A DNA stretch of 64,000 nucleotides, taken from assembly GCA_946811695.1 (NCBI GenBank), contig OX328127.1, positions 51,588,274-51,652,273 on the forward strand, read 5' to 3'. The stretch comes from Gonocerus acuteangulatus (Eukaryota > Arthropoda > Insecta > Hemiptera > Coreidae). Positions 10,488-62,100 of the stretch are shown piece after piece. A program made the position numbers and the translations under genes. The notes under the pieces are model-generated. The model saw nothing but the letters and a program-made list of their open reading frames with translations, was not told the DNA's origin and made no database searches. Position 1 is the stretch's first letter. Every line of letters starts with the position of its first letter.

Positions 10488-10586
10488 TTTTACGGCGCAT
10501 CGACATCTTGGCCATTAGCGCCGACATCCAGGGTGCAGGGAGGAATATTCCCAACGAGCCGTGAGATGAGAAAATTCCTGCCGCCT
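10488..10586 (-). mobile_element. SINE-1, 3' half (split by Transib-like element)
   Basis: T-run, then ACGGCGCATCGACATC and the family body up to AAATTCCTGCCGCCT, where the Transib-like element begins. The tRNA-like head of the same SINE resumes at 12252. Rejoining the halves restores the usual SINE-1 order. Confidence 0.85.
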
Positions 10587-10615
10587 CACAGTGTAACGTC
10601 CAATGGACAAAAACC
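10587..10615 (+). other. RSS-like left end: heptamer-13-nonamer
   Basis: Heptamer CACAGTG (10587-10593), 13-nt spacer (10594-10606), nonamer ACAAAAACC (10607-10615). Heptamer and nonamer both equal the vertebrate V(D)J recombination-signal consensus. The spacer is one longer than the canonical 12. Confidence 0.85.
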
Positions 10616-11313
10616 TGAATTTTTGTTTTCTTATATTTCATTTTTAATCCTCTAGCTAAGTTTAGAAACTCTTCAAGGAATTGAAATCTTATGAAACTAA
10701 TAAGTATTAGTTTTATTTTGATTAAGAAACACATTAGCAGTATTATAAACAATGCAAAATCTTTAAAACCTGTTTCATACCAACAATCAGTTTGAGCCTC
10801 TCTCGTTGAAGAAAGGACCGTCTTTTTATTAAGTCATGCGAAAGAAATTACGTCAAAACTATTCATTTTTTATCTGATATAATTGATTATGGGTAATTAC
10901 TCCCTTATTGTTTATCCTGAATTATTCTTCATTGATTTTTGATATTTTTCTTAAGTACAAAATTTTGATAGACCATAGCAAAAAAAACTTCATCTGAACA
11001 CATCTCAAGTTTTTTAGAGAATAAAGTTTACCTCAAGTATAATGTACTGAGGGCAATTTAGTTTGCCGATTCCAAAGATTTTTATTTTTAGATCCATCAC
11101 ATAATACAATTTTTTTTCCAAATTTGAAAAAATGTGGATAAATCCAAGAAAACGGTATTAATCCTTGGGCAAATGATTCAATTTCATCTGCAGGATGCTC
11201 CTAAAGAAGCATTAAGCAATATTAAAAAGACTGCCAGTTTAGTCCTATATTATATGTAAAAAATGTGGGAACGTGTTCACCGCAGAGAAAAAACTCTTAT
11301 ATAAATACTGTTT

Positions 11314-11641
11314 GGGGGCGAGGTTAGCTCAGTGGTGAGCACTGGACTAATAAGCTGGCGGCCTGAGTTCAAATCCCGAGCAAGCTCTAAAGATTTTTTC
11401 TTCTAGTGTCTTCGTTCATGGGTTGAATTCGGCCTCCCTGACCGTCCCTAGGCCGACCCAGCCTTTAATTAATTTAATAATGGGTACCTTGGGTGCTAAT
11501 GACTCCAGCAGTCGAAGCAGCCAAGGGGAAAATCAGGCGGCCGGAGCATAGTGCTGACCACACCATCTCCCTAGTGTGCCGTATGGTCATGAATCAGATA
11601 CCTCTATAGTATCTGCCCCTCAGGGCCCTCGTGGCCCTTCT
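11314..11641 (+). mobile_element. SINE-2 copy inside the Transib-like element
   Basis: Full-length by comparison: head GGCGAGGTTAGCTCAGTGG, B box GAGTTCAAATCC, body, and 3' end near GGGCCCTCGTGGCCC. Compared with the other Transib-like copy, about 60 bp of host element is missing at the junction and no clean target duplication is visible, so the insertion came with, or was followed by, a deletion. Confidence 0.85.
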
Positions 11642-12212
11642 ATATATATTATATAATATTCACGTCCTGATGGCCCTTCCGGCTTCCTTAGAGGCAGACA
11701 TAAAAAAGAGTTTACAGCGTTGTGTGAGATATCGAAAAAGCGCTGGGTTCTTCTGATATCTGGCCCAGAGCTTTCTTTACGGAGAAAAAACATAAAAAGG
11801 CAAAACAAAATCAGTCCAGACATTAATGAATGCATAATAGAGGATGACATTGATAATCAAATAGATATTGATTTCGATATAAGTTTTCATTCTCAAGAAT
11901 CCTAAAACGATTCAGACTCGGAATTAAGAAATTATTTAATAATTTCATAGAAAATAGTAAAATATTATTACTCTACGGCAATATTACTATAAGTATAATT
12001 TACTACTATACTATTACTACATGTTATGTTACCGTTATAATATATTTTATAATATTGTTATTAATAATATTATTACCTGCTATATTATGTCTATTAATAT
12101 TACAATTAATATTATTATAGTCGTTTAGTATGCATTATTATACTATTGTTACTTTGTTTTGAGTCGATTTCAATTAATAACAATTTTTATTTGAAAATAA
12201 CTAGTGGTTAAT

Positions 12213-12251
12213 GATTTTGGTCCATAATCCTCGCTACTTTGTTACACTGTG
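12213..12251 (-). other. RSS-like right end: heptamer-23-nonamer
   Basis: On the minus strand: heptamer CACAGTG (12251-12245), spacer of exactly 23 nt (12244-12222), nonamer-like ACCAAAATC (12221-12213), 7 of 9 matching ACAAAAACC. Confidence 0.82.
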
Positions 12252-12310
12252 CGCCGGTGGGAACCGAACACATCATCTGCCGCAAATGAATCTAAATCGT
12301 TAGACCCCTT
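12252..12310 (-). mobile_element. SINE-1, tRNA-like head (other half)
   Basis: Continues the SINE broken at 10586. It begins CGCCGGTGGGAACCGAAC, the complement of the B-box region, followed by the anticodon-stem-like part. Degraded past about 12310. Confidence 0.75.
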
Positions 12311-16734: not shown

Positions 16735-18005
16735 TTATTTATTTAATTTATTATGAGTTTCGCGACGGAGGCGACTGACTCACAAGAACAGCAGAATCAA
16801 AGTCCGTTAAAGTAGTAGTCAGGTCGTAATATTACAAAAGATTAAACTTAAATAAAACACTAGTGAAAAAAAATAAAAATAAAATAAATAAAAAATTGAA
16901 AAAGACAAAACATGAAGCAACATACTTTATACAATAAAGACAGAGAAAAAAAATTAGAAGAATACATATAATTATATTTTCGAATAATAGTTCAGTGTTT
17001 TGAGATGTGTCAGAAGTATTTCGATGTATTGGCTACCCTCTGTTAGTAAGTCATGTAAGTCGTGTGGAATTGTCAAGTTGCTGAGTTGTCTACAGTCTGT
17101 CAGTATATGTTTAACAGTTAGAGTTCTGTTACACTGTCTGCAAGTCGGTCTTTCTTTTCTGTGTAGTAAGTACGAATGGGTAAGTCGGGTGTGACCTATC
17201 CGAAGCCTGGATAAGATGACTTCCTCTCTTCGGGAGAATTGTTCTTTTATCCAGGCTTTGGTTGTGTTTTTGATTTCCCTTAACTTCGAACTACTTCTCA
17301 ACCAATCTCTTTCCCATTCGTACAGTAAGTTAGTTCGTAATGTTTTGGTCAAGTCTGATGAAGTCACAGTGTTTACATCAGGCACGGGTCGGTCTGTAGC
17401 CAGTTTTGCCTGTGCGTCTACAGCTGTGCTCGTTCCGATGTCTTCGTGTCCAGGTAGCCAGAACAGTGTAATGTGTTTGTTTTTATTTTGAAGAATGTTG
17501 ATTTGAGTAAATATGTTTTGAATAATAGGGTGTGTGTTATAAATGTTCTGTAAGGATATTAAGGAACTTAAGGAATCTGTACAAACCGTGATCATGTCTG
17601 TTTCTTCGTCATGGACGTTAGTCAGTGCCAAAAGTATTCCGTAAAGTTCTGCTGTATATACTGTCGCTTGTTCTGGTAATTTAATTTGGTACGTATTGTC
17701 CCTTAAAATGGCTGCTGCTCCTGTTCCAGAGTTTTTCTTGGATCCGTCGGTATAAGTGTACAATGTGCTAGGATTTTGTCTTATCATCGAGTGGAATGTA
17801 TGTTTGTATAATGATGTGTAAGTCGGTTCTGTCTTCTTATATTTTGTTAGAGTCAAGTCAATCCTTAAGTTCCTTAATCTCCAAGGTGGTGTGTCACTGA
17901 ATTTGTTTTTAAGGATTGAAGAGTCGGCTAAAATTGAATTCCTTCTATCTTCTAGAGAAGTGCTATCTAGTTTTAGAGAAAGACAGGTGATCGAAGATTG
18001 TCCCC
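16735..18005 (-). mobile_element. 5'-truncated LINE (I/R1/LOA-like) with RNase H
   Basis: The surviving 3' portion of a non-LTR retrotransposon: an RNase H and zinc-knuckle coding region (16972 to about 18000), then an AT-rich 3' region. Reverse transcriptase and endonuclease are missing, so it is a dead 5'-truncated copy. I could not find a convincing target duplication, so both outer limits are approximate. Confidence 0.8.
16972..18000 (-). pseudogene. LINE polyprotein C-terminus: RNase H + zinc knuckle
   Basis: The open frame runs from about 18000 to the stop at 16972; no true start is expected because the 5' part is lost. RNase H type I motifs are in order: YTDGSKKNSGTG (first Asp), AELYGILLAL (Glu), CTDSLSS (second Asp), LPGHEDIG and a following VDAQAK (His/Asp). 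It ends with C-x2-C-x7-H-x4-C (CRQCNRTLTVKHILTDC). This arrangement is that of I/R1/LOA-type LINEs. The frame is uninterrupted for over 330 codons, so the insertion is not very old, but lacking a reverse transcriptase it cannot move by itself. Its sequence differs clearly from the LINE at 58580-60875, so it is a different family. Confidence 0.88.
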
Positions 18006-27828: not shown

Positions 27829-30313
27829 ATGGACTTCATAGGTTTACTCCCTCCAGAAATATCTTTGAAAATACTTTCACATCTGGATATGCAAGACATA
27901 TTAAACTGTTGTTTAGTTAGTAAAGCTTGGTACAACGTTACTAATTGCAATAGTATTTGGAAATATTTTTGGAATCCTAATAATCCACTGAAAGAATGTG
28001 AAGGATGTGCAGGTAAATTTATTTCTTATTTCATTAATTCCTAAGGCAAATTGGTACATTCCGAATGTTTTCCCAAGACTTAAAATTAATAATTTATAAA
28101 TTAAAAAATGAATATTTTGACGTATGCTTTGAATAGTATATTTTTCTTTTCTTATACATTAGAATTTCTTTTTGAACAGAATGTGAATTAAACTATTTAT
28201 TATGGGGTTCCCTTACATTCCATTAAACAAAAAACACAGTTTATATTTTTTAGCCTTTCAATTTATAATTTCGACAGACAAGGAAGACAGTGGTATAATA
28301 AACTCTTATCGAGGTAACTGCCAATATCCCTGAGAAAAAATAGAACTTCCTAAAATTTCTGTTTTCGACACTTTTAAAATTGAGTTAATTCATTAGGCTG
28401 CTTTACATTTTTTTCTGCAAACTAGATTTTTATTAATGGGGTAACCTTTGGATAGGAAATCCTTAAAAAAATTGCCATAAAAAAGAGGCGTTAAAGTAAA
28501 ATTACAAGTATAATTTATAGTTCCAGATTTTTTATTTTACAAATTGGATTAGGTATATAATTCGCAACAAAACTCTAAAGTCTAAGGAATTTTATCAGTT
28601 TTTTTTTCAATAATTGATTTGAAGAATACCAATGTTCTGGAGAAAACTCATTTTTTTAAATTAAAGCCCAAAGGGCTTTCTCATCCAGCGTTTAATCTCT
28701 TCATGACAAATATTATAAGTAGTTACATAGACATTGTTTGTATGAACGTTCTCAGACATGGTCTCCCAGTTACGAATAAATACTTCTGATCACTACCAAT
28801 GCACAGCAATAATTGAGTATTGATGGCCCAAAATCAGAATATCAAGGCTATCGCTTCAATTCCGACCGCCAATACTTTTTTTTCACAGCACACAAATATT
28901 ATTGATTGTGTGCGGGCCTCATTAGATTGGTACTACCTTCCCCAAGATAATCTTATATAATATAGACGCCACTCGCTTTTGGCTTTGTCTGTTCGACCAA
29001 TGTTTGGCAAGTGATGCCTTAGGACCATTACAATGGAAATCAGAATGCCTTTGGGCGTTCGATATTATATAGCCAATTCTAGGCTATATAATATAGAATA
29101 AGTTAATTAGTATAGTTTTTGGTTTGAGAAATTCAAAGTACTTAAAAAGGATTTAGAGATCGACTTTAATTTTTCAGATTTTGATTGGACCTACAGTGTT
29201 CCTTGTAAGTGGAAACTTTATCGCATGAATCACTACAGAGTAATTAATAATTGGCGGGAAGATAGATATAAAAGGTATGAAATAAACGGAAGGTGGCTTG
29301 ACACAACAGCTTATGATGGAAGAACATTAGTGGTGAATAATGGACCCCTAGATGTATACAGAATTGAAAATGGCAACTTGGTTCATATACAAACTCTGAG
29401 GTACAAAAAGCATGATGCTTACATGTGTTCGACCAACAGTTCATTTATTGCTGTGAAATATAAACCTTTTGTTGTTATTTACCGGTGTGAAAATGACAAA
29501 TATAAAATTTCACATTATTTATATAATAGAGGTAGGAATACTAAACTTTATTGTACAAAGGACCCAAAAGAAATAGACAGCCTGACTGATGATTATTTTA
29601 CTTATCCTTATTGGTCGAATTTAATGTGTATTTTGAGTGATACACTATATGTGTATTTACCTCACCTAAAGGTTATGTATGCATGGGAGATGAAAGAAAT
29701 GAAATGTTTGCTTGAAAAAGAAGCAGACATCAATGATGTATCCTATGATAAACATTTTGTTTATTTATGCATAAGGAACTCAATATATGTTTTCGACAAG
29801 GACGGAAATATGGTCATGAGGCTGGAAACCAAGTGGAACATTGGAAAAATGCATTGTAACCACAACATGATCTTAGCTCAACATGGACTAAATGATGAAG
29901 TCGAGTTTTGTGCATGGGACAAAACGACCGGTAATTTAATGTTCCATAAAAAAATGAACGTTAGTGAAGATATTATCCTTCATCCGAAGAGAGATGTAAT
30001 TTTGGATATGGTCGACAAGTGGCAAGTAGAAAAGAAGGAAATAACAGCTTACAATTTGATGAATGATTCCATTTTATGGAAATCTCGAGTAAGTGAATAT
30101 AGCCTTTTAGGAGATCTGCATAGCATTGTTGCTGAAAGGTTTCTTCTTTTCTGTACATACACTAGACATATATTTGACATATATGACACTGAGACGGGGA
30201 GATACTTGTATTCCCTCAATCACATCGATGACGATGATTTATATGCTTCATATGATTTGTTAATTTATTCGTGTAACAAAAACGCTAAATTAATTTTACA
30301 TATTTACTCATAA
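27829..30313 (+). CDS. F-box protein with probable beta-propeller C-terminus
   Basis: Two coding exons, 27829-28012 and 29178-30313, joined in phase 1 (GT at 28013, AG at 29177), give about 439 aa. The ATG follows an acceptor directly (TTTTACAG then ATG). Residues 4-45 are an F-box (LPPEISLKILSHLDMQDIL, then CCLVSKAWYN and W-KYF), the part that binds SKP1 in SCF ubiquitin ligases. The remaining ~375 residues have repeated hydrophobic/aromatic strands (YRCENDKYKI, LYVYLPHLKV, YVFDKDGNMV, FCAWDKTTGNL, FDIYDTETGRYLYSL) about 40-50 residues apart, as in WD-like propellers, but without clean WD signatures. Substrate unknown and no orthologue recognised. Intron 1 is 1.17 kb. Starting at the ATG at 29225 would lose the F-box and is not favoured. 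Confidence 0.82.
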
Positions 30314-48458: not shown

Positions 48459-48497
48459 CACAGTGTAACGAAGTAGTGAGGATTATGGACAAAAATA
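48459..48497 (+). other. RSS-like end: heptamer-23-nonamer (copy 2)
   Basis: Heptamer CACAGTG (48459-48465), 23-nt spacer (48466-48488), nonamer-like ACAAAAATA (48489-48497), 7 of 9 to consensus. Preceded by CGCCG. The spacer length matches the corresponding end of copy 1. Confidence 0.82.
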
Positions 48498-48620
48498 ATT
48501 AACCACTAGTTATTTTCAAATAAACATTTTTATTAATTGAAATCAACTCAAAACAAGGTAACAATGCATACGATATGGCTATAATAATATTAATTGTAAT
48601 ATTAATAGAAATAATATAGC

Positions 48621-48797
48621 GGGGGTCTCCCGTGGTCTAGTGGCTAGCGCCTTGGATTCATAAGCGGGAGATGGTGGGTTCGATTCCCATCTGCGGCAAG
48701 AATTTTCTCATCCCACGGCTCGGGAAAATTCCTCGCTGTACTCTGGATTTTGGCGCTGATGGCCTAGATGTAGATGAGCCGTAAAAAGAAAAAAGAA
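48621..48797 (+). mobile_element. SINE-1 inserted in Transib-like copy 2
   Basis: Head GTCTCCCGTGGTCTAGTGG, B box GGTTCGATTCC, body, tail TAGATGTAGATGAGCCGTAA and a short mixed A/G tail. Flanked by AATATAGC (48613-48620 and 48798-48805). The empty site is seen in copy 1 (complement of about 12070-12100). Confidence 0.9.
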
Positions 48798-48825
48798 AAT
48801 ATAGCAGGTAATAATATTGTTAATA

Positions 48826-50964
48826 GGGTCATTCCATGTCAAATCAACAAGGGTCACAACCCGACCTTCTTGGATTTTAATAAAATTTGGTAGGTTGGTT
48901 ACTCTAACAAAAAATAACCAAAAACAATTTTTTTATCTGTTTCCGTTTTTTTAGTATTAATTTTCAAAGTATTGGAAAACCGTCTTTTTTTGGTCAACTG
49001 GATGATGTTAATTGCTTGGTAGATTGAGTTCTATTTTAGCTAGAACAGCCAGCATAGTCTCATTGTTTAGCTAATTAAATGGACTTTAATTTGATATACA
49101 ACAAGACCAACTTATTACAAATTTTACGTTTCAAACAAAATTTCGAAAACTTGTACGTAACGGTTTTCGAAAAACTGTACTTTTAAAATTCTGAAAAAAA
49201 TATATTTGAATCTTCAGTTCATTGACTACATATGCTGTTAGTTTCATTATGGGATGGGAACGGGATCATTTTATAACATAATTTTGACTTTATAATTGTC
49301 ACTGCGTAGTTGGTAAAAATATGGTGATTGATGGGTATTTGTATTGTAAATTCAGCAATAAGCATCCCTGATCAAAATTTGAATTTTTTTCAGACAGAAC
49401 TAAAATTAAAGGGGAGATTTGGAAAAAAAAAATACTGGAACCCAGAAATTGCACCCTTTCATTCCTTTGACTAAGAAAAAAATTAAGACTCAACTTTACT
49501 CGAACTTTAATAAAAGTGAAGTTGAACTGGTAGGTAACTGATTTAGACACAGATACAGTAGCCTTTAATGGAAAAATATGTGGTAGTTTTATTGCCTGTA
49601 AATATGACGACCAGTGGTGGCTGACATGTGTACTCAACAAAAATGAGGAGATGGATGAAATAAAATTTAATATCCAACATGTCTCAATTATTACAAATTT
49701 CATTTTTCAAAAAATGTTTTGAAAATTTGTACAAAACGATTTTTGAAAAACTGAGCTTTTAAAATTCTGAATATATTTCAATCTTCAGTCCATTGACTAC
49801 ATATGCTGTTAGTTTCATTATGGGAACATTTTACAACGTAATTTTAACTGATTTAGACTCTGATCCAGTAGCCTTCAATGAAAAAATATGTGGTGGTTTT
49901 ATTGCCTGTGAAAATGACAACCATTGGTAGCTGGCATGTGTACTCAACAAATTACACAGTTTAAATGTATTATCACAATAGCACAAAAATGGATATGACC
50001 GTTTATTAAATGTTATAAATGGTCTTTTTTTTCCCCCATTGCCATCCCATAATAAAACCATCATTTGTAGTCTAAAATTATGTAAAACATTTTTTGAAAA
50101 ATGAAATTTGTAATAATTGAGACATGTTGGATATTAAATTTGATTTCATCCATCTCCTCATTTTTGTTGAGCCAATAAAACTACCACATATTTTTTCATT
50201 GAAGGCTACTGTATCTGTCTAAATCAGTTACCTACCAGTGCAACTTCACTTTTATTGAAGTTCGAGTAAATTGAGTCTTAATTTTTTTCTTAGTTAAAGG
50301 AATGAAAGGGTGCAATTTCTGGGTTCCGGTAATTTTTTTTTTTTTTTTCAAATCTCCCCTTTAATTTTAGTTCTGTCTGAAAAAAATTCAAATTTTGATC
50401 AGGTATGCTTATTGCTGAATTTACAATACAAATATCCATCACTCACCATATTTTTACCAACTACGCAGTGACAATTATAAAGTCAAAATTATGTTATAAA
50501 ATGATCCCGTTCCCATCCCATAATGAAACTAACAGCATATGTAGTCAATGAACTGAAGAGTCAAATATATTTTTTTCAGAATTTTAAAAGTACAGTTTTT
50601 CGAAAACCGTTACGTACAAGTTTTCACAATTTTTTTTTTAAAAGTAAAATTTGTAATAAGTTGGTCTTGTTGTACATCAAATTAAAGACCATTTAATTAG
50701 CTAAACAATGAGACTGTGCTGACTGTTCTAGCTAAAATAGAACTCAATCTACTAAGGAATTAACATTTTCCAGTTGACCAAAAAAAGGCGGGTTTTCAAT
50801 ACTTTGAAAATTAATACTAAAAAAAACGGAAACAGATAAATTTCTTTAAAAAATTTACCATTCAAGGAGTTGATAGAGCTATTAGGATTCAAAATTTCAA
50901 AAAAATCTAAGAGGGTCAGGTTGTAAATTGTACTTTCATTGGTTGAATTGACATGGAATGGCCC
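48826..50964. mobile_element. 2.14-kb fold-back DNA element, copy B
   Basis: Same family as 22964-25104: ends GGGTCATTCCATGTCAAATC and GACATGGAATGGCCC, with inverted arms of about 1 kb. It is flanked by AATA (48822-48825, 50965-50968), and the uninterrupted Transib-like copy 1 shows a single AATA there (complement of ~12056-12060), which proves a 4-bp duplication. Frames of 134 and 77 codons on the minus strand are translations of the arms. Confidence 0.9.
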
Positions 50965-52019
50965 AATAACAATATTATAAAATATATTATAACTGTAACA
51001 TATAATTTAGTAGTAGTAGTATAGTAGTTAATTATACTTATAGTAATATTGCCATAGAATAATAAAATTTTACCATTTTCTATGTAATTATTAAATAATT
51101 TCTTAATTCCGAGTGTGAATCGTTTTGGGATTCTTGAGAATGTAAACTTATATCGAATCCAATATCAATTGGGTAATTAATGTCATCCTCTATTATACAT
51201 TCATTAATGTTTGCCTTTTTATATTTTTTCTCTGTAAAGAAAGCTCTGGGCCAGATATCAGAAGAACCTGGCGCTTTTTCGATCTCTCACACAACGCTGT
51301 AAACTCTTTTTTATGTGGGCCTCTAAGGAAGCCGGAAGGGCCATCTGGGCGTGAATATCTTTTTTCTTGATAAAAGTTAATAACAATTTCTTTTAAGTTG
51401 ATATATTGTTTCAACCAGTATTTATATAAGAGTTTTTTCTCTGCGGTGAACACGTTCCCACATTTTTTACATATAATATTAGGACTAAACTGGCAATCTT
51501 TTTAATATTGCTTAATATTTCTTTAGGAGCATCCTGCGTATTAAACTGAATCATTTGCCCAAGTATTAATACCGCTTTCTTGGATTTATCCACATTTTTT
51601 CAAATTTGGAAGAAAAAATAAATTGTATTATATGATTGATCTAAAAATAAAAATCTTTGGAATCGGCAAACTAAATTGCCCTCAGTACATTATACTTGAG
51701 GTAAACTTTAAGCTCTAAAAAACTTGGGATGTTTTCAGATGAAGTTTTTTGCTATGGTCTATCTACATTTTGTACTTAAGAAAAATTTCAAAAATCAATG
51801 AAGAATAATTCAGGATAAATAATAAGGGAGTAATTACACATAATCAATTATATCAGATAAAACAGGAATAGTTTTGATGTAATTTCCTTCGGATGACTTA
51901 ATAAAAACACTGTCCTATCTTCAACGAGAGAGGCTCAAACTGATTGTTGGTATGAAACAGGTTTTAAAGAGTTTGCCTTGTTTATAATACTGCTAATGTG
52001 TTTGTTGATCAAAATAAAA

Positions 52020-52110
52020 CCAACTAACCTTTGGTTTTTCTCCATCACCTGTTAATTGTTGCTGAAGAGCATGCCAAAACATCCAATCTAGGTGATAATC
52101 TGTAGCTGAA
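52020..52110 (-). other. exon-like segment next to truncated Transib-like end
   Basis: The minus-strand frame reads ATDYHLDWMFWHALQQQLTG then DGEKPK, followed by a possible donor (AAG/GTTAGT) exactly at the start of the Transib-like match. The text looks protein-like (two W, aromatic-rich) but I cannot name a family, and the upstream acceptor is unclear. It may be an exon truncated by the element, or part of the element. Confidence 0.3.
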
Positions 52111-52923: not shown

Positions 52924-53523
52924 TTATACAACTCTTCGCACTTCAAAGAATCTTTTCAAATAATAGACTTGACCTATTGTCATAGTTATAAGGACAACTG
53001 CTTCAAAAATTGACCATGTTACCACTCTGCTATTAGTAGCTTCATTTATGCCATGATGTATACGATCCCTGACACTCATGTACTCTTGTTCGTGTTTAAC
53101 ACCAGTCAATGCTGTCGTTAATTCTTTGATCATTTGTTCCATTTTATTGTGGTCAGCATCATCTTTATTCTCACTTGAGGGAGCTTCACCAACTTCCATA
53201 TTGAACATAACAACTTTTGGAGTCATAGTAGACATTTGGTTACTGAAGCAGTATGTGTAGATTCCATCCTTATGAGCAGAAAATGTAAATTTCCCACTAG
53301 TTTCTCTTTCTCCCGAGTATATAACATTTCCATCTGGTCCTACTATTTTCACATCTATGTCTAAAAATCCTCCTTCAGAAATTTCAAACATTAATCCAAG
53401 TTTAGTACCTTCTTTAACTTTCTCGAAAAAACATTCTTCAGAATGTGCATCCACAGTCACAAAATAAGCTTTGGATAAACAAATGAAATAAGATAATAAT
53501 CCTAAATAAAACAGGTAATACAT
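52924..53523 (-). CDS. TMED2: transmembrane emp24 domain-containing protein 2 (p24 beta)
   Basis: 199 aa, single open frame. Residues 1-~19 are a hydrophobic signal peptide ([15 protein letters not shown]); a GOLD domain follows ([20 protein letters not shown], then [20 protein letters not shown], ending [10 protein letters not shown] with the paired cysteines). Next come a heptad-rich coiled coil around residues 125-160 ([20 protein letters not shown]), a transmembrane helix (~172-190, [19 protein letters not shown]) and the cytosolic tail [11 protein letters not shown] with the FF (COPII) and RR (COPI) sorting signals. p24 proteins cycle between ER and Golgi as cargo receptors and coat-recruiting factors. 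Length and tail match animal TMED2 closely. The CDS has no intron here, whereas many animal TMED2 genes have several, so a retro-copy that became functional is possible. Divergent from the GTSF1-type gene, 2.7 kb away. Confidence 0.96.
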
Positions 53524-56197: not shown

Positions 56198-59100
56198 AGG
56201 ATGACAACGCCTGAGGAGATCATAACATGCCCTTATAACAAGGCGCATAGTATAATACTGAATAGAATGCAATTTCACTTGGCCAGGTGCCGAGTTCAGC
56301 ATCCTCATGCAGAGAAGACAACCTGTCCTTTTAATTCTACTCACGTAGTTAATAAAGTCGAACTAGATGTAAGAATCTTACTTTATTAATCATTAATTTA
56401 CTACGAATGAGTGACTTGAAGTAAATTTTCTTCCTAGGGCATTGTCATGAGGTGTGGAATTGAAAAAAAAAAAAAATGATACATTTCAAAGAAAAGTAAC
56501 TATTATGGTTGCCCTCATGAAAGAATTTTCAAAAAATCGTCAAATCTTTATCAATCCCATCTACTAGGCACTGAAATTATTTTGTTAACAATTATATGTG
56601 CGTGCGAGGCTGTTAACATGGTAGGGGCACAATTTTTGTTCTTGTATCTTTTATGCATAATGAGTTAGAAGGCTCCATATCCATACGCAGTTCTTCTGAG
56701 CTAAGCATTATTCATTTGTGCGAGTTAATGCTCAACACTATGGAAAAATTCTTATAAGTTTACTTTATTTATCATTAATTATTTATTTTTCAAAGGGGGG
56801 CCAGGTGGTACAACAATCGACTCAAGTTCTGGTGGACCTGAGTTTGAAACTTGGCCGCACACTGAAAGATTTTATCTTTTAGAGTTGTTCAGGTTCCCAC
56901 GTCCTCCCTAGGCCATCCAGCCTTTAATGGACGGGTAACTGCAAAGGGGAAAATTAGGACGTCAGAGCATAGTACTGAGCACACTATCTCCCTTGTGTGC
57001 CTTATGATCAAGAATTCTCATCAACTTCTGCTCCTTTGGACCCTTCTGATCTGTTACGGGACTATTTTACATTAAATTCAGTGACTTCGTTCAATCTTTA
57101 CATCAGTGAATCTTGGTACGGCAAGGTTAGAAAGGAGGGTTACAGTAAGTTGGGTATAGAATCTATATCAAGAATAGAAACTACTCATTGAAAACTAACA
57201 ACAGATAAAAAAGCAAATTACTTACTACTTAAGACTGTAATCTAACTGAGAAGTTATTTGTGATTATGTATTTGGATTCAAATTTGGAAAAAGGTTTGTT
57301 TTTTTTTTTTTTTTACTTTAGACTTTAAAAAATCAATCTCTTAACACGAGGCCACAAAGAGACTCATCATTTAGAGATATCCGAAACTTGACCATATTAG
57401 GGAGACAGTCTGGTCTGTAATACGCTCCAATGGCCTGATGCTACGTATGAAGTGATCCATTAATGGCTGGATAGGCCTAGGGATGGTCTGGGACCCAAAC
57501 TCCATCTCTGGAAGATGAAATCTCTCAGTGAATGTCCGAGTTTTGAACTCAGGTCTTACTGAATGTGAGTGTTCTACCATTGAGCCTATTGGTGGTGGTA
57601 ATTAAAATCTTTTATTTAGCTGATTCTAAATTTATTTATGAGTAGAAAGAAATATTTTAGAACATTAAACGAATGGAGCAAGGGAGCTCACATTTAGTAT
57701 ATAAATTTAGTCCCATTACAGGCTGCATGAGTCCAACAAGGCAGATACAGTGTTTCTCTGTTTCTTTATCATCAATAATTAACTATTTAATCATAATAAG
57801 CCTAAATAATTTGAAGCCTCAGTTTTCTATTTATACCCGAGCTCACATAGACAGATTCTTCGTCTTAGCAATTGGCCATAAATCGGCCATCTTGGTAATA
57901 GGCCATAAATTACACTTCAAGCTTTATTTTTATAAACGAAATATTCTATTATAATTTGTAGCAAGTATCACTACTAAAGAAAAGGGTGGCCTGGTTGCAA
58001 ATGCAGCTGAACAGAGTTTTTGGAAATCTACGATTGAACGTTTCAAACTTATAATATTAAAAATAAATAAATCATCTACGTACTCCACTTCCTGTCATCA
58101 TAAAGAACATTGAATTTTCTTTTTATAGATTCATCAGAAAATTTGTGATGATCGGATTGTACTGGATTCATTCAGGTACAAAGTTGGGGAGAGCTCCAAA
58201 ACTCGTTTAACTACGAATGTTGATGAAAAAGTGAGCTTTGATGAAAGCTGGGATGATGTAAGTTTTATTATAGTCAACTATAATATTGTTTTGCTGGCAT
58301 ACTAATTCATATTATTTTAATTTAATAATAATCTTGTCATTTAGCGTGCATTCCGATAGTGCTGACATTTTTATACCACATAGATCAGGAAAAAGAAGGT
58401 TGCTCAAATTTTATATATATATATATACATAGATAAAAATGCCATCTCTAAAACTTAATTTTATTCCTATCCAGGAAAATTAAAATTTCCGATTTATAAA
58501 AATTAAAGTTAAATTAATTAAGTATGTATTACATGCTTGAACAGCAATTATTGATTTACTATTTTTGATTTTTCACATAGAAGATTTTCTAGATTTAGAT
58601 TTAGAAAACAAGGTGCCCGGCTAACCGAGGAACCGCACCGAGGCCTATAAGACCTATTGTGCCACCCGACATGTCGTTCTGTTACAATGCCAGACCCGTA
58701 TCAGAGATGAACTTCCTTAAAGTTGTGATGTTCAGCTCTGGTATCCTCCTTGGATCATCAATTATCGCCGTCCCGAAGTGAAAATACCTCTTGGCTGCCA
58801 GTGTCGTGCATCTGCATACAATATGGTATGGGGTCTCGTCATCCTCAGAGCACAATCTGCACCATGTTGTATTGGAGAGTCCCATGGAGTAGAGGTGTCT
58901 CCGTAGTTTGCAGTGCCCTGTAAGTAGGGCCGTCAGTAGTTTCACCTTGCTTCTACATAGATTAAGCAGTGAATCCGTTCTTTTCTTATCCGCAAAGACC
59001 ATGAATTGCTTAGCCTGTCTCTGGGTAGCACTTCTGCTCCAATTCCTCTTGTGTTCAGCTTCAGCCCACCTACGGATGCTCAATCTGGCAACAGCCACAC

Positions 59101-62100
59101 ATCAGCAATTCCACATATTGGCTCTAGTGAGAGAGGTGTCGTGGATGCTCCTATGTTAGCCAATTCATCAGCCTTCTCATTCCCAGGTATGCCAGAGTGC
59201 CCTGGTACCCACTCTAGTTTGACCTTGTTTTTCCGGCCTAGATTATTCAGGCTATCCTTACACTCCTGTACGACCTTAGATTTTATTCTGTTTGCAGCTA
59301 ATGCCCTTATAGCGGCTTGGCTGTCCGAGAATATAGTAAAGCGTTTGTCTCTAGGGCTTCCGGTGTTCATGATGTCCGCACACATATTAATGGCCAATAC
59401 CTCAGCTTGAAACACTGTAGCATAATTGCCAAGTGGTATGTTGAGACTGTGTGTGGTATCCTGAATCCACACCCCTGCTCCTGTACCTAGTTCAATTTTC
59501 GAGCCGTCGGTAAATCCATAGCTGTCTACCCGGCTTTGTATCATTTTATGTCCCATCGCCTCCTCTCTTGTTTTGATTGTTGTAACAAAATTTGAGCTGA
59601 AGGTTATCTGGTCTTGGTAGTCCGAAGGCATGCAGAGAATTGGTTCCTGCAGGTTCCTCCAGATAATATCACAGTGTGCACTAAACGTTGGACATGGTTT
59701 CTGTCCCAATATACTGAACCTATATGCCGTATGTCTAGCCGTTTCTTCAATAAAAATCTCTATTGGCCTTAGGTTAAGCAGGATCTCCATAGCCCCCGTG
59801 GGGGTGGAGCCCATTGCGCCTGTAATCATCAGGCAAGCCATCCTTTGCGGAGAGCCTAGTATTCTCTTATTGATCGTAGTGTCGCAGCGATGCCACCACA
59901 CTATTGCTCCATACGTAATTATCGGTCTCACAATCGCGGTGTAGATCCAATGCATAGCCTTGGGGGTTATGCCCCAGTTGTTCCCAACAACTCTCCTACA
60001 TGCCCACAGGGTCCGTGTGGCCTTATTGGCTTTGTTGTGAATGTGCTCCTTCCAGTTAAGTTTCGAGTCCAAAGTGACTCCTAAGTATTTTACTGTACTG
60101 GAATAACTTAAATTGCTGCCTGCAAGCCTCGGTGTACCTAGTCCCTCCACTTTCCTTCTTGTTGTGAAGGGTACCAGTGTGATCTTCTGCGGGTTGATCT
60201 TAAGATGTTTATCCCTGCACCATTCGTCCACAATGCGTACTGCTGCATCGAGCAGTTCAGCTAGGGTAGGTAGTACCTTCCCCGCCACTGTAATCACCAG
60301 GTCATTAGCACACGCCTGTACGTTAAATCCCTGATCCTTGAGTCTTGTCAGCAGTGTATCTACCACCATACACCACAACAGAGGTGATAAGACTCCCCCC
60401 TGGGGGCAGCCTGTCCTTGGTTTAATGTATTTGCAGTAAGTTCCCTCTAACAGCCTTATGGTACGATCTCTCAAAAGGGTTACCGACCAGTCTGTTATGA
60501 GTTCCTCTACTTTCCTGCTGACCATGGCGTCTCTTACCGCCGCGATGGGAGTTTTATCAAAAGCTCCCTCCACGTCTAGAAATGCACATAGTGCTGTCTC
60601 CTTGTACTGTACAGTCCTCTCCAGCTTGCACACCAGATCATGTAGTGCTAATTCGCACGATTTGCCTGTCTGATATGCATACTGTTGCTTGCCAAGAGGA
60701 TTATGTCTTAACGCAGAATCCCTGATGTGTCTGTCTATGATCTTCTCTAGTGCTTTAAGTAAGAAAGATGATAGACATATCGGCCTGTAGTCCTTTGCAT
60801 ATAGGTGTGACGCTCTTCCTGGTTTGGGGATAAAGCACAGTCTGGCTACTCTCCAGTTCCGTGGTATGTAGCCTAATTTTTCACATAAATTTGTATATTC
60901 TTTGATTCATATTCCTCTGATATCATATTTATTTTGGTCTAGTTATGATTTGAAATGGAAGACAAACTTATTTGATTAAATTCGGTAGCTCAAGTAAAGA
61001 TGAATTGAAACTTGTGAATTTCTTAACAGTACTCAGGAAGAGCAATAAACCTAATGCGAATTTCTTTTGTTAAACAAAAGTCTTCAGAAACAACAATATT
61101 TGTTTTATTTTCCTAATTCATTTGGCTTATCAGGAACTCTTGGTTGAATCAGTACTGGAGAATGTAAAGAAGGATTCTCTTAGTAAACCCGCATTTACAG
61201 TTTTGATTGGAGCTGCTAAGAGTGAAAGGAAAGCTCATAGATTTTGTGAAAGACTGAGAATTCAACGAGTCTTGGATGAAAAGGTACCTTCATAAAACAT
61301 AAATGTCTTGATAAGTAATAAATATTTTATTAATCACATTCATTACTGAGTGTCTAGCTTTTGAGAAGGCCAATATTTTACATAGAAATAATTTATATAA
61401 CGTTTACCACAAATTTTTCTAAAGAAAAATGTGTTAAACCATTCTCAGTGATTATGACCATTCCTTTGTGAAATTGGCTTCTGCCTGTCTGATGAATCTA
61501 CAAACATTTGTATCATATCAGGCAATAGGACCGTGTGCTAAAGGAATGTCTGGTGTTTATTAACTTTACAAATTATAAAAACAGAAAATAACACAACTTC
61601 TTTGATGCTCTGAGAATCGATGGTGGAGGAATAATTTACTGAAAAACTGTTAAAACATAGTGCCCAATAAACTATAATGATGAAGCTCTATGTCTGAATC
61701 TGTTGTTAGTATTGCTCAGACGGTAAGGGTTCCAAGTATAAAAAAGAATATACATAAAAATGGCTTAAACTTGTTGAAAAGTTGAACATTTGAAACTTAT
61801 GACCTATTCTGATTTAGCACGTCAAATTACATAAGAATAAGCTTGACGACTATCTGTTTTTTTTTTTAAGCTTTCACCAGCTTAGCTGGTGGTCAGATTG
61901 TTCACAATTTGTCATTATCTTCATAATTTGTTTTGTGATCACTTGGAATCCAGGGCTTTCTGATCAAAACTGGTGTTTCCAGATACAAACATTTTATATT
62001 CTTTTCATTGGTGTATTATTGAAAATAATTGTTTGGCAGAAAATAATGTAATACATTTAGAATAGAATTTATAATTGGAATATTTTAAAATTTCAAATGA

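What the first reader, a model, noticed from the sequence alone, without database searches (positions are those of the whole stretch)
10587..12251. Mobile element whose ends read as 12/23-type V(D)J recombination signals
Seen: left end CACAGTG, 13-nt spacer, ACAAAAACC (a perfect RSS heptamer and nonamer); right end CACAGTG, exactly 23 nt, ACCAAAATC (7/9). The second copy (48459-48497) repeats the 23-nt version with ACAAAAATA. Known: the RAG recombinase and its signals derive from Transib transposons, whose ends begin with CACAGTG-like heptamers and give 5-bp GC-rich duplications. Inference: this is a Transib/RAG-lineage element with asymmetric 12/23-like termini, i.e. the spacing pair used by the jawed-vertebrate 12/23 rule, inside an invertebrate genome.
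Basis: partly seen in the sequence, partly recalled or inferred. Interest (0 to 1): 0.92.

Follow-up and report, generated by a model that had tools for sequence, protein, structure and literature searches.

The report
Transib transposon with RSS-like ends
An abundant, gene-less jumping element in this animal genome carries two unequal end signals that look almost exactly like the signals vertebrate immune cells use to shuffle antibody genes; such elements were known from flies and mosquitoes, so it is a fine new example rather than a new kind.

Summary
The element at 10587-12251 is one copy of a family with at least 1,020 matching ends in this 1.1-Gb genome. In the 40 best-scoring loci, 40 of 40 left ends have a heptamer, 13 nt and a nonamer (commonest ACAAAAACC), and 34 of 34 right ends have 23 nt (commonest ACAAAAATC). 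Insertion makes 5-bp, mostly CRNYG, duplications (22 of 41 exact). These are Transib hallmarks. The genome holds many Transib transposases (959 candidates, 150 scored); one 498-aa frame matches the solved Transib at E 1.5e-100. Of three other Transib families read, two carry heptamer plus A-rich nonamer at 22-23 bp at both ends (one 3' copy has 25), so the 13-bp end is the oddity. The 1.39-kb element is non-autonomous; its neutral ORF weakly resembles a Transib N-terminus fused to a C-terminus. No enzyme with the same ends was found. Asymmetric 12/23 Transib ends are already published (Transib5; Anopheles Transib2, N1-N3). New in detail: near-consensus match, copy number, and one favoured palindromic site in a SINE-like repeat (29 of 41 insertions).

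The parts
10587..12251 (+). Non-autonomous Transib-type element, both ends present, with a 341-bp stretch of foreign repeat in place of about 53 bp; family consensus about 1,391 bp
10587..10593 (+). left-end heptamer CACAGTG
   Evidence: 38 of 40 copies
10594..10606 (+). left spacer, 13 nt
   Evidence: 40 of 40 copies have 13
10607..10615 (+). left nonamer ACAAAAACC
   Evidence: ACAAAAACC 22 of 40, ACAAAAATC 13 of 40
12245..12251 (-). right-end heptamer CACAGTG
   Evidence: 30 of 34 copies
12222..12244 (-). right spacer, 23 nt
   Evidence: 34 of 34 copies have 23
12213..12221 (-). right nonamer ACCAAAATC (family consensus ACAAAAATC)
   Evidence: ACAAAAATC in 25 of 34 copies
10582..10586 (.). 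target duplication, left copy CGCCT
   Evidence: 4 of 5 match to the right copy
12252..12256 (.). target duplication, right copy CGCCG
11690..11905 (+). decayed ORF; in the consensus 139 aa, weakly like a Transib N-terminus (WL..., RSKRR) fused to a Transib C-terminus (LLIS.P.LS.R plus acidic tail)
   Evidence: neutral
11315..11655 (.). tRNA-SINE-like repeat inserted in this copy
   Evidence: other copies align 1-728 and 1070-1665 with about 53 bp between; repeat class judged by eye
10490..10586 (-). SINE-like repeat that served as target, left half
   Evidence: extent by eye
12252..12300 (-). SINE-like repeat that served as target, right half
   Evidence: extent by eye
48459..48623 (-). second copy, right end (23-nt spacer, nonamer ACAAAAATA)
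50965..51358 (-). second copy, interior part after an interruption
51412..52023 (-). second copy, left part; its outer ~120 bp are not found

Best explanation
It is a non-autonomous member of the Transib superfamily, probably an internal-deletion derivative of a Transib whose own transposase gene I could not find in this genome. Its two ends are a 13-spacer and a 23-spacer heptamer/nonamer signal. Inferred working: a Transib transposase dimer cuts at the heptamer/flank border by nick and hairpin (as published for HzTransib), holds the ends partly through an NBD-like N-terminal domain on the nonamer, about one helical turn apart in the two ends, and inserts the excised DNA into a 5-bp CRNYG site, with a strong preference for one palindromic site in a SINE-like repeat. 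Shown: ends, spacers, duplications, target site, copy number, Transib enzymes and RSS-like Transib ends in the same genome. Inferred: which enzyme moved it, nonamer use, and any rule pairing 13 with 23.
For: Ends and spacers: 13 in 40/40 left, 23 in 34/34 right; 1,020 genome-wide matches, control 0. Among the 100 printed places, all 23 convergent neighbours within 12 kb pair a 13-end with a 23-end. TSD: identity 0.873 at 5 bp, exact in 22 of 41; 0 exact at 3, 4 and 6-9 bp; CRNYG in 32 of 41 on each side. Published Transib target motifs are CCANTGG (hopper, transib2; passages of PMC3276498), and mouse RAG strand transfer was solved on CGCCG (passages of the preprint PMC11844651). Transib transposases in the same genome; L065 ORF against the solved Transib 6pqn, E 1.5e-100. 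Family A ends CACAGTG-22-CCAAAAATC; family C 5' ends CACACTG-23-ACAAAAGTS. Family C sits at the same site of the SINE-like repeat in 2 of 2 copies (by eye). The ORF aligns to a profile of Transib N-termini at residues 22-73 and of C-termini at 73-129. Hairpin cleavage by HzTransib: passage of PMC6941560.
Against: No copy with both these ends and a transposase was found: the Transib probe matches nothing in the window or loci L001-L060 at E up to 10, and two chimeric probes found no place with high identity over both halves (150 scored of 1,379 and of 1,346 candidates). The ORF similarity is weak: N-part rank 18 of 1,940 and C-part rank 3 of 1,912 scored among the ORF and 2,000 shuffles; no Pfam family and no Transib in PDB. 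Transib family B has the heptamer but no good nonamer. The whole end, spacer included, is conserved, so there is no separate sign of selection on heptamer and nonamer.
Confidence: 0.88

Rival explanations
1. It is a Transib, but the nonamers and the 13/23 spacing have no function: A-rich subterminal sequence fixed by descent from one master copy.
For: Copies are about 3-4% from consensus and the ends are conserved throughout, spacer included; HzTransib-like TIRs are described as having little or no nonamer similarity (PMC8289069 passages); family B here lacks a good nonamer.
Against: The two ends share CACAGTGTAAC and ATGGACAAAAA but not what lies between; families A and C of the same genome carry A-rich nonamers at 22-23 (one 3' copy at 25) with unrelated spacers; the spacing persists with varying right spacers.
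Confidence: 0.3
2. A CACTG-ended element of another superfamily (CACTA/EnSpm, Chapaev or similar) that converged on CACAGTG ends.
For: No partner enzyme with identical ends was found.
Against: 5-bp CRNYG duplications; same target site as a bona fide Transib, family C; same heptamer and similar nonamer context as Transib family A; CACTA 3-bp and Chapaev 4-bp duplications (recalled) do not fit.
Confidence: 0.04
3. A relic of, or donor to, the vertebrate V(D)J system (shared recent ancestry of the 12/23 pair).
For: Left end equals the RSS consensus in heptamer and nonamer (consensus quoted in PMC8289069).
Against: Families A and C in the same genome are near-symmetric at 22-23, so the 13-end is most simply a local shortening; no RAG1 (PF12940) match in this genome (but that search rang in no control either).
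Confidence: 0.02

Closest known systems
Transib5 (Drosophila melanogaster) and Transib2, N1, N2, N3 (Anopheles gambiae)
   Same: Transib elements with asymmetric 12/23 (plus or minus 1) spacers between RSS-like heptamer and nonamer (PMC8355894 figure legend and section 6, read as passages)
   Different: Host and family differ.
Subgroup I/II Transibs (PMC9435367)
   Same: Subgroup I all asymmetric, subgroup II both kinds; both carry an NBD equivalent with a GRP motif (passages)
   Different: Subgroup of this element cannot be assigned without its enzyme.
HzTransib (Helicoverpa zea)
   Same: Superfamily; the solved Transib chain (6pqn; that it is HzTransib is recalled) matches an enzyme of this genome
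   Different: Described as symmetric, without clear nonamer (PMC8289069 passages).
Vertebrate 12RSS/23RSS
   Same: Heptamer 7/7 both ends; nonamer 9/9 left, 8/9 right (consensus); spacers 13 and 23
   Different: Transposon ends, not signals beside V, D, J segments; no RAG2 gene in the element.
ProtoRAG (amphioxus)
   Same: Asymmetric TIRs, 5-bp duplications biased to GC
   Different: 27/31 spacers and other elements (PMC8289069 abstract and passages); carries RAG1L/RAG2L genes.

Membership tests
Transib superfamily | TIRs starting CAC, heptamer close to CACAGTG/CACAATG | tested here: met
   38 of 40 left and 30 of 34 right ends are CACAGTG
Transib superfamily | 5-bp GC-rich palindromic target duplication | tested here: met
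   22 of 41 exact at 5 bp, none exact at 3, 4, 6-9; CRNYG 32 of 41 each side
Transib superfamily | RAG1-core-like DDE transposase between the same ends | tested here: inconclusive
   No partner found (genome searches score 150 places each); other Transib enzymes abound
Transib superfamily | Remnants of transposase in the non-autonomous element | tested here: inconclusive
   N- and C-terminal profile matches in order, but weak
12/23-asymmetric Transibs (Transib5-like) | One 12 (+/-1) and one 23 (+/-1) spacer between heptamer and nonamer | tested here: met
   13 in 40/40, 23 in 34/34
12/23-asymmetric Transibs (Transib5-like) | Common descent with Transib5 or Anopheles Transib2/N1-N3 | not testable with these tools
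   No reference sequences held; no partner enzyme
RAGL (RAG1L-RAG2L) transposons | RAG1L and RAG2L gene pair inside the element | tested here: not met
   In the 1.39-kb consensus the longest stop-free stretch is 139 codons, without a Pfam domain
V(D)J recombination signal pair | Flanks antigen-receptor segments | tested here: not met
   Ends of a dispersed repeat
V(D)J recombination signal pair | Cut by RAG1/RAG2 under the 12/23 rule | not testable with these tools
   Needs a bench assay

The most novel reading that the evidence does not exclude
A Transib lineage has independently arrived at, and kept through subfamily diversification, a near-consensus 12/23-type signal pair without RAG2, and its enzyme requires one short and one long signal. 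The ends would be a natural substrate for vertebrate RAG, and the near-symmetric 22/23 Transib families A and C in the same genome would show how 12/23 asymmetry arises by loss of one helical turn at one end. In addition, Transibs of this genome are guided to a single palindromic site of a SINE-like repeat.
Probability: 0.2. Interest if true: 0.7.

Novelty: new member of a known kind. Interest (0 to 1): 0.42.

Why it matters
How the 12/23 asymmetry of V(D)J signals arose is open, and one published hypothesis rests on the few Transibs that have it (PMC8355894 passages). This family adds a case with over a thousand sequenced ends, a left end identical to the RSS consensus in heptamer and nonamer, and near-symmetric Transib families beside it in the same genome for comparison. 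The concentration on one site of a SINE-like repeat is an unusual target choice; one search for such reports (20 of 297 papers listed, only listing and abstract starts seen) showed none.

Tried and rejected
Autonomous partner by RAG1 Pfam model: no match, but the model rang in no control genome either, so uninformative. Partner by long copies: in L049-L060 the aligned parts are copies of the element split by other sequence, or end pieces; the ORF listing of that call was cut in the middle, so I did not see all of it, but the Transib probe matches nothing in the window or L001-L060 at E up to 10. Partner by chimeric probes (recalled catalytic part plus the element's ORF tail; the ORF head plus a Transib N-half from L062): the best place, family A (the L064 locus), spans residues 1-170 of 176 at 49% identity and one other reaches 146, so the tail resembles family A's own tail; rows at 70% identity or more cover only the ORF part. 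In one search the top 3 rows cover only the L062-like half, the rest the ORF half, apart from a few low-identity extensions, some with stops (for instance 1-122 at 57%), judged noise. Selection on the ORF: none (nonsynonymous/synonymous ratio against expectation 1.06; stops 31 observed, 30.6 expected; 51 copies). ORF against Pfam and PDB: nothing relevant (a DGCR8 match at E 0.75 was discarded). tRNA call on the SINE-like repeat at 48600-48830: ARAGORN found none; 'SINE-like' rests on a B-box-like motif (recalled) and copy number. Host species: not determined.

Full report
What is there. The element at 10587-12251 starts CACAGTG TAACGTCCAATGG ACAAAAACC and ends, read inward on the other strand, CACAGTG TAACAAAGTAGCGAGGATTATGG ACCAAAATC. 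The copy at 48459 is the right end of one interrupted minus-strand copy continuing at 50965-52023. A search of the host genome (1.106 Gb, 135 contigs) with the first 614 bp gave 1,257 candidates; of the 40 scored, 39 start at base 1 and one at base 2.

Consensus and spacers. Forty loci (the window and 39 others) gave 40 left ends, 34 right ends and 32 pairs. The spacer to the best nonamer is 13 in 40 of 40 left ends and 23 in 34 of 34 right ends. CACAGTG is intact in 38 of 40 and 30 of 34. Left nonamers are ACAAAAACC in 22 and ACAAAAATC in 13 of 40; right ones ACAAAAATC in 25 of 34. The 40 loci were the best scorers with a left-half query, so left ends are biased towards good preservation. The pattern CACAGTGTAAC-N(4-30)-ATGGACAAAAA, which allows spacers of 12 to 38, has 504+516 matches and none for the reversed control. 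Of the 100 printed, all on the first 98 Mb of contig C1, 49 have 13, 50 have 23 and one has 16; all 23 convergent neighbours within 12 kb pair a 13-end with a 23-end. That pairing fits a rule but also plain descent from one master. The majority consensus, from 8 copies, is 1,391 bp. Outside the ORF and CpG sites the copies differ from it by 3.3%, at CpG sites by 8.9% (51 copies).

How good is the likeness. With the heptamer fixed and the rest shuffled, a perfect nonamer at 11-13 occurs in 8 of 200,000 shuffles of the left end and an 8/9 nonamer at 22-24 in 270 of 200,000 of the right end. The two ends share CACAGTGTAAC and ATGGACAAAAA but not the bases between, and differ by 10 bp, about one helical turn.

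Why Transib. Of 41 paired insertions, 22 have exact 5-bp duplications; mean identity is 0.873 at 5 bp, and no insertion is exact at 3, 4 or 6-9 bp. Both copies mostly read CRNYG (32 of 41 left, 32 of 41 right). Published Transib motifs are CCANTGG for hopper and transib2 (PMC3276498, passages), and mouse RAG strand transfer was solved on CGCCG (preprint PMC11844651, passages). A recalled Transib probe, which matches the solved Transib 6pqn at E 3.7e-72, found 959 candidates in this genome, 150 scored. The 498-aa open frame at C31:78532264 matches 6pqn at E 1.5e-100 over residues 34-495, although Pfam has no family for it. Three families were read. A has CACAGTG-22-CCAAAAATC or CCAAAAATA at the 5' end (two copies) and spacers 22 and 25 at the 3' end (two copies). 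C has CACACTG-23-ACAAAAGTC or ACAAAAGTG at the 5' end, and its 3' ends read by eye as CACACAC-23 followed by ACAAAAGTA or AAAGTATTT. B has the heptamer but at best 5-6 of 9 nonamer bases, at other spacings. So RSS-like ends at 22-23 occur in two of three Transib families read here, and the 13-spacer end is the exception.

Origin of the element. The consensus ORF of 139 aa, KYWLKQYINLEEIV...GRHKKEFTALCERSKKRRV|LLISGPELSLRRKN..., aligns to a profile of Transib N-termini of this genome at residues 22-73 and to one of C-termini at 73-129. The order fits an internal deletion that removed the catalytic core. The scores are weak: rank 18 of 1,940 and rank 3 of 1,912 scored sequences among the ORF and 2,000 shuffles. 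A GRP-bearing NBD equivalent is published for both Transib subgroups (PMC9435367, passages). The ORF now evolves neutrally. No partner enzyme with the same ends was found, so the element is orphan or cross-mobilised as far as tested; searches score only 150 places each.

Target. In 29 of 41 paired insertions both flanks are halves of one site, about GATTCCCACCGGCGGCAGGAAT, in a SINE-like repeat (at most 6 of 19 mismatches per flank; a looser rule gave 30). By set it is 27 of 32 in the first, best-scoring loci and 2 of 9 in the later ones from the C1 listing, so the genome-wide fraction may be lower. The left end faces either half about equally (15 and 14). By single flanks it is 66 of 95. Five unoccupied sites lie in the first 40 loci; two of these paralogous sites (L017, L047) carry a single CGGCG/CGGTG, in keeping with a 5-bp duplication. 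Transib family C sits at the same place in 2 of 2 copies. The site is close to palindromic, as is usual for such elements (PMC3276498).

Known or new. PMC8355894 (passages and figure legends) lists Transib5 of Drosophila and Transib2, N1, N2 and N3 of Anopheles as having 12/23 asymmetry with spacers exact to plus or minus 1, some with heptamers and nonamers identical to RSSs, after Kapitonov and Jurka 2005, which is not held. PMC6941560 (passages) also notes identical heptamers and nonamers, with spacers of various lengths. PMC9435367 says subgroup I Transibs all have asymmetric TIRs. The finding is therefore correct but a new member of a known kind. What it adds is copy number, a near-consensus match, near-symmetric Transib families in the same genome and the preference for one site of a SINE-like repeat.

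Noticed in passing
L060:418-4584 (G000:C1:1050800-1056000): A copy of the element whose ORF region has expanded into a 27-bp minisatellite of about 154 units (98% matches), keeping a 1,477-codon stop-free stretch.
   Followed up: partly
window 52924-53523, minus: ORF of an emp24/gp25L/p24 (GOLD) protein, Pfam E 1.7e-56.
   Followed up: partly
window 59080-60633 minus and 16972-17856 minus: Retrotransposon ORFs (non-LTR by look): reverse transcriptase plus RNase H, and RNase H.
   Followed up: partly
window 29225-30313, plus: Uninterrupted 362-aa ORF with no Pfam match at E 0.001.
   Followed up: no
L025 flanks: Both flanks are the same half of the SINE-like target site in inverted orientation, as if two inserted elements had recombined (the only such case among 29).
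   Followed up: no
L015, L028 and L058 flanks: Three insertions at what looks like one position of a second, different repeat (CTTGATTTTGCGCCGATG-like on one side, GGTCTGTTTCACCCCATCG-like on the other), L058 in the opposite orientation (by eye).
   Followed up: no
element copies, 51 loci: CpG sites are mutated 2.7 times as often as other non-ORF sites (0.089 against 0.033), suggesting germline CpG methylation of these repeats.
   Followed up: no
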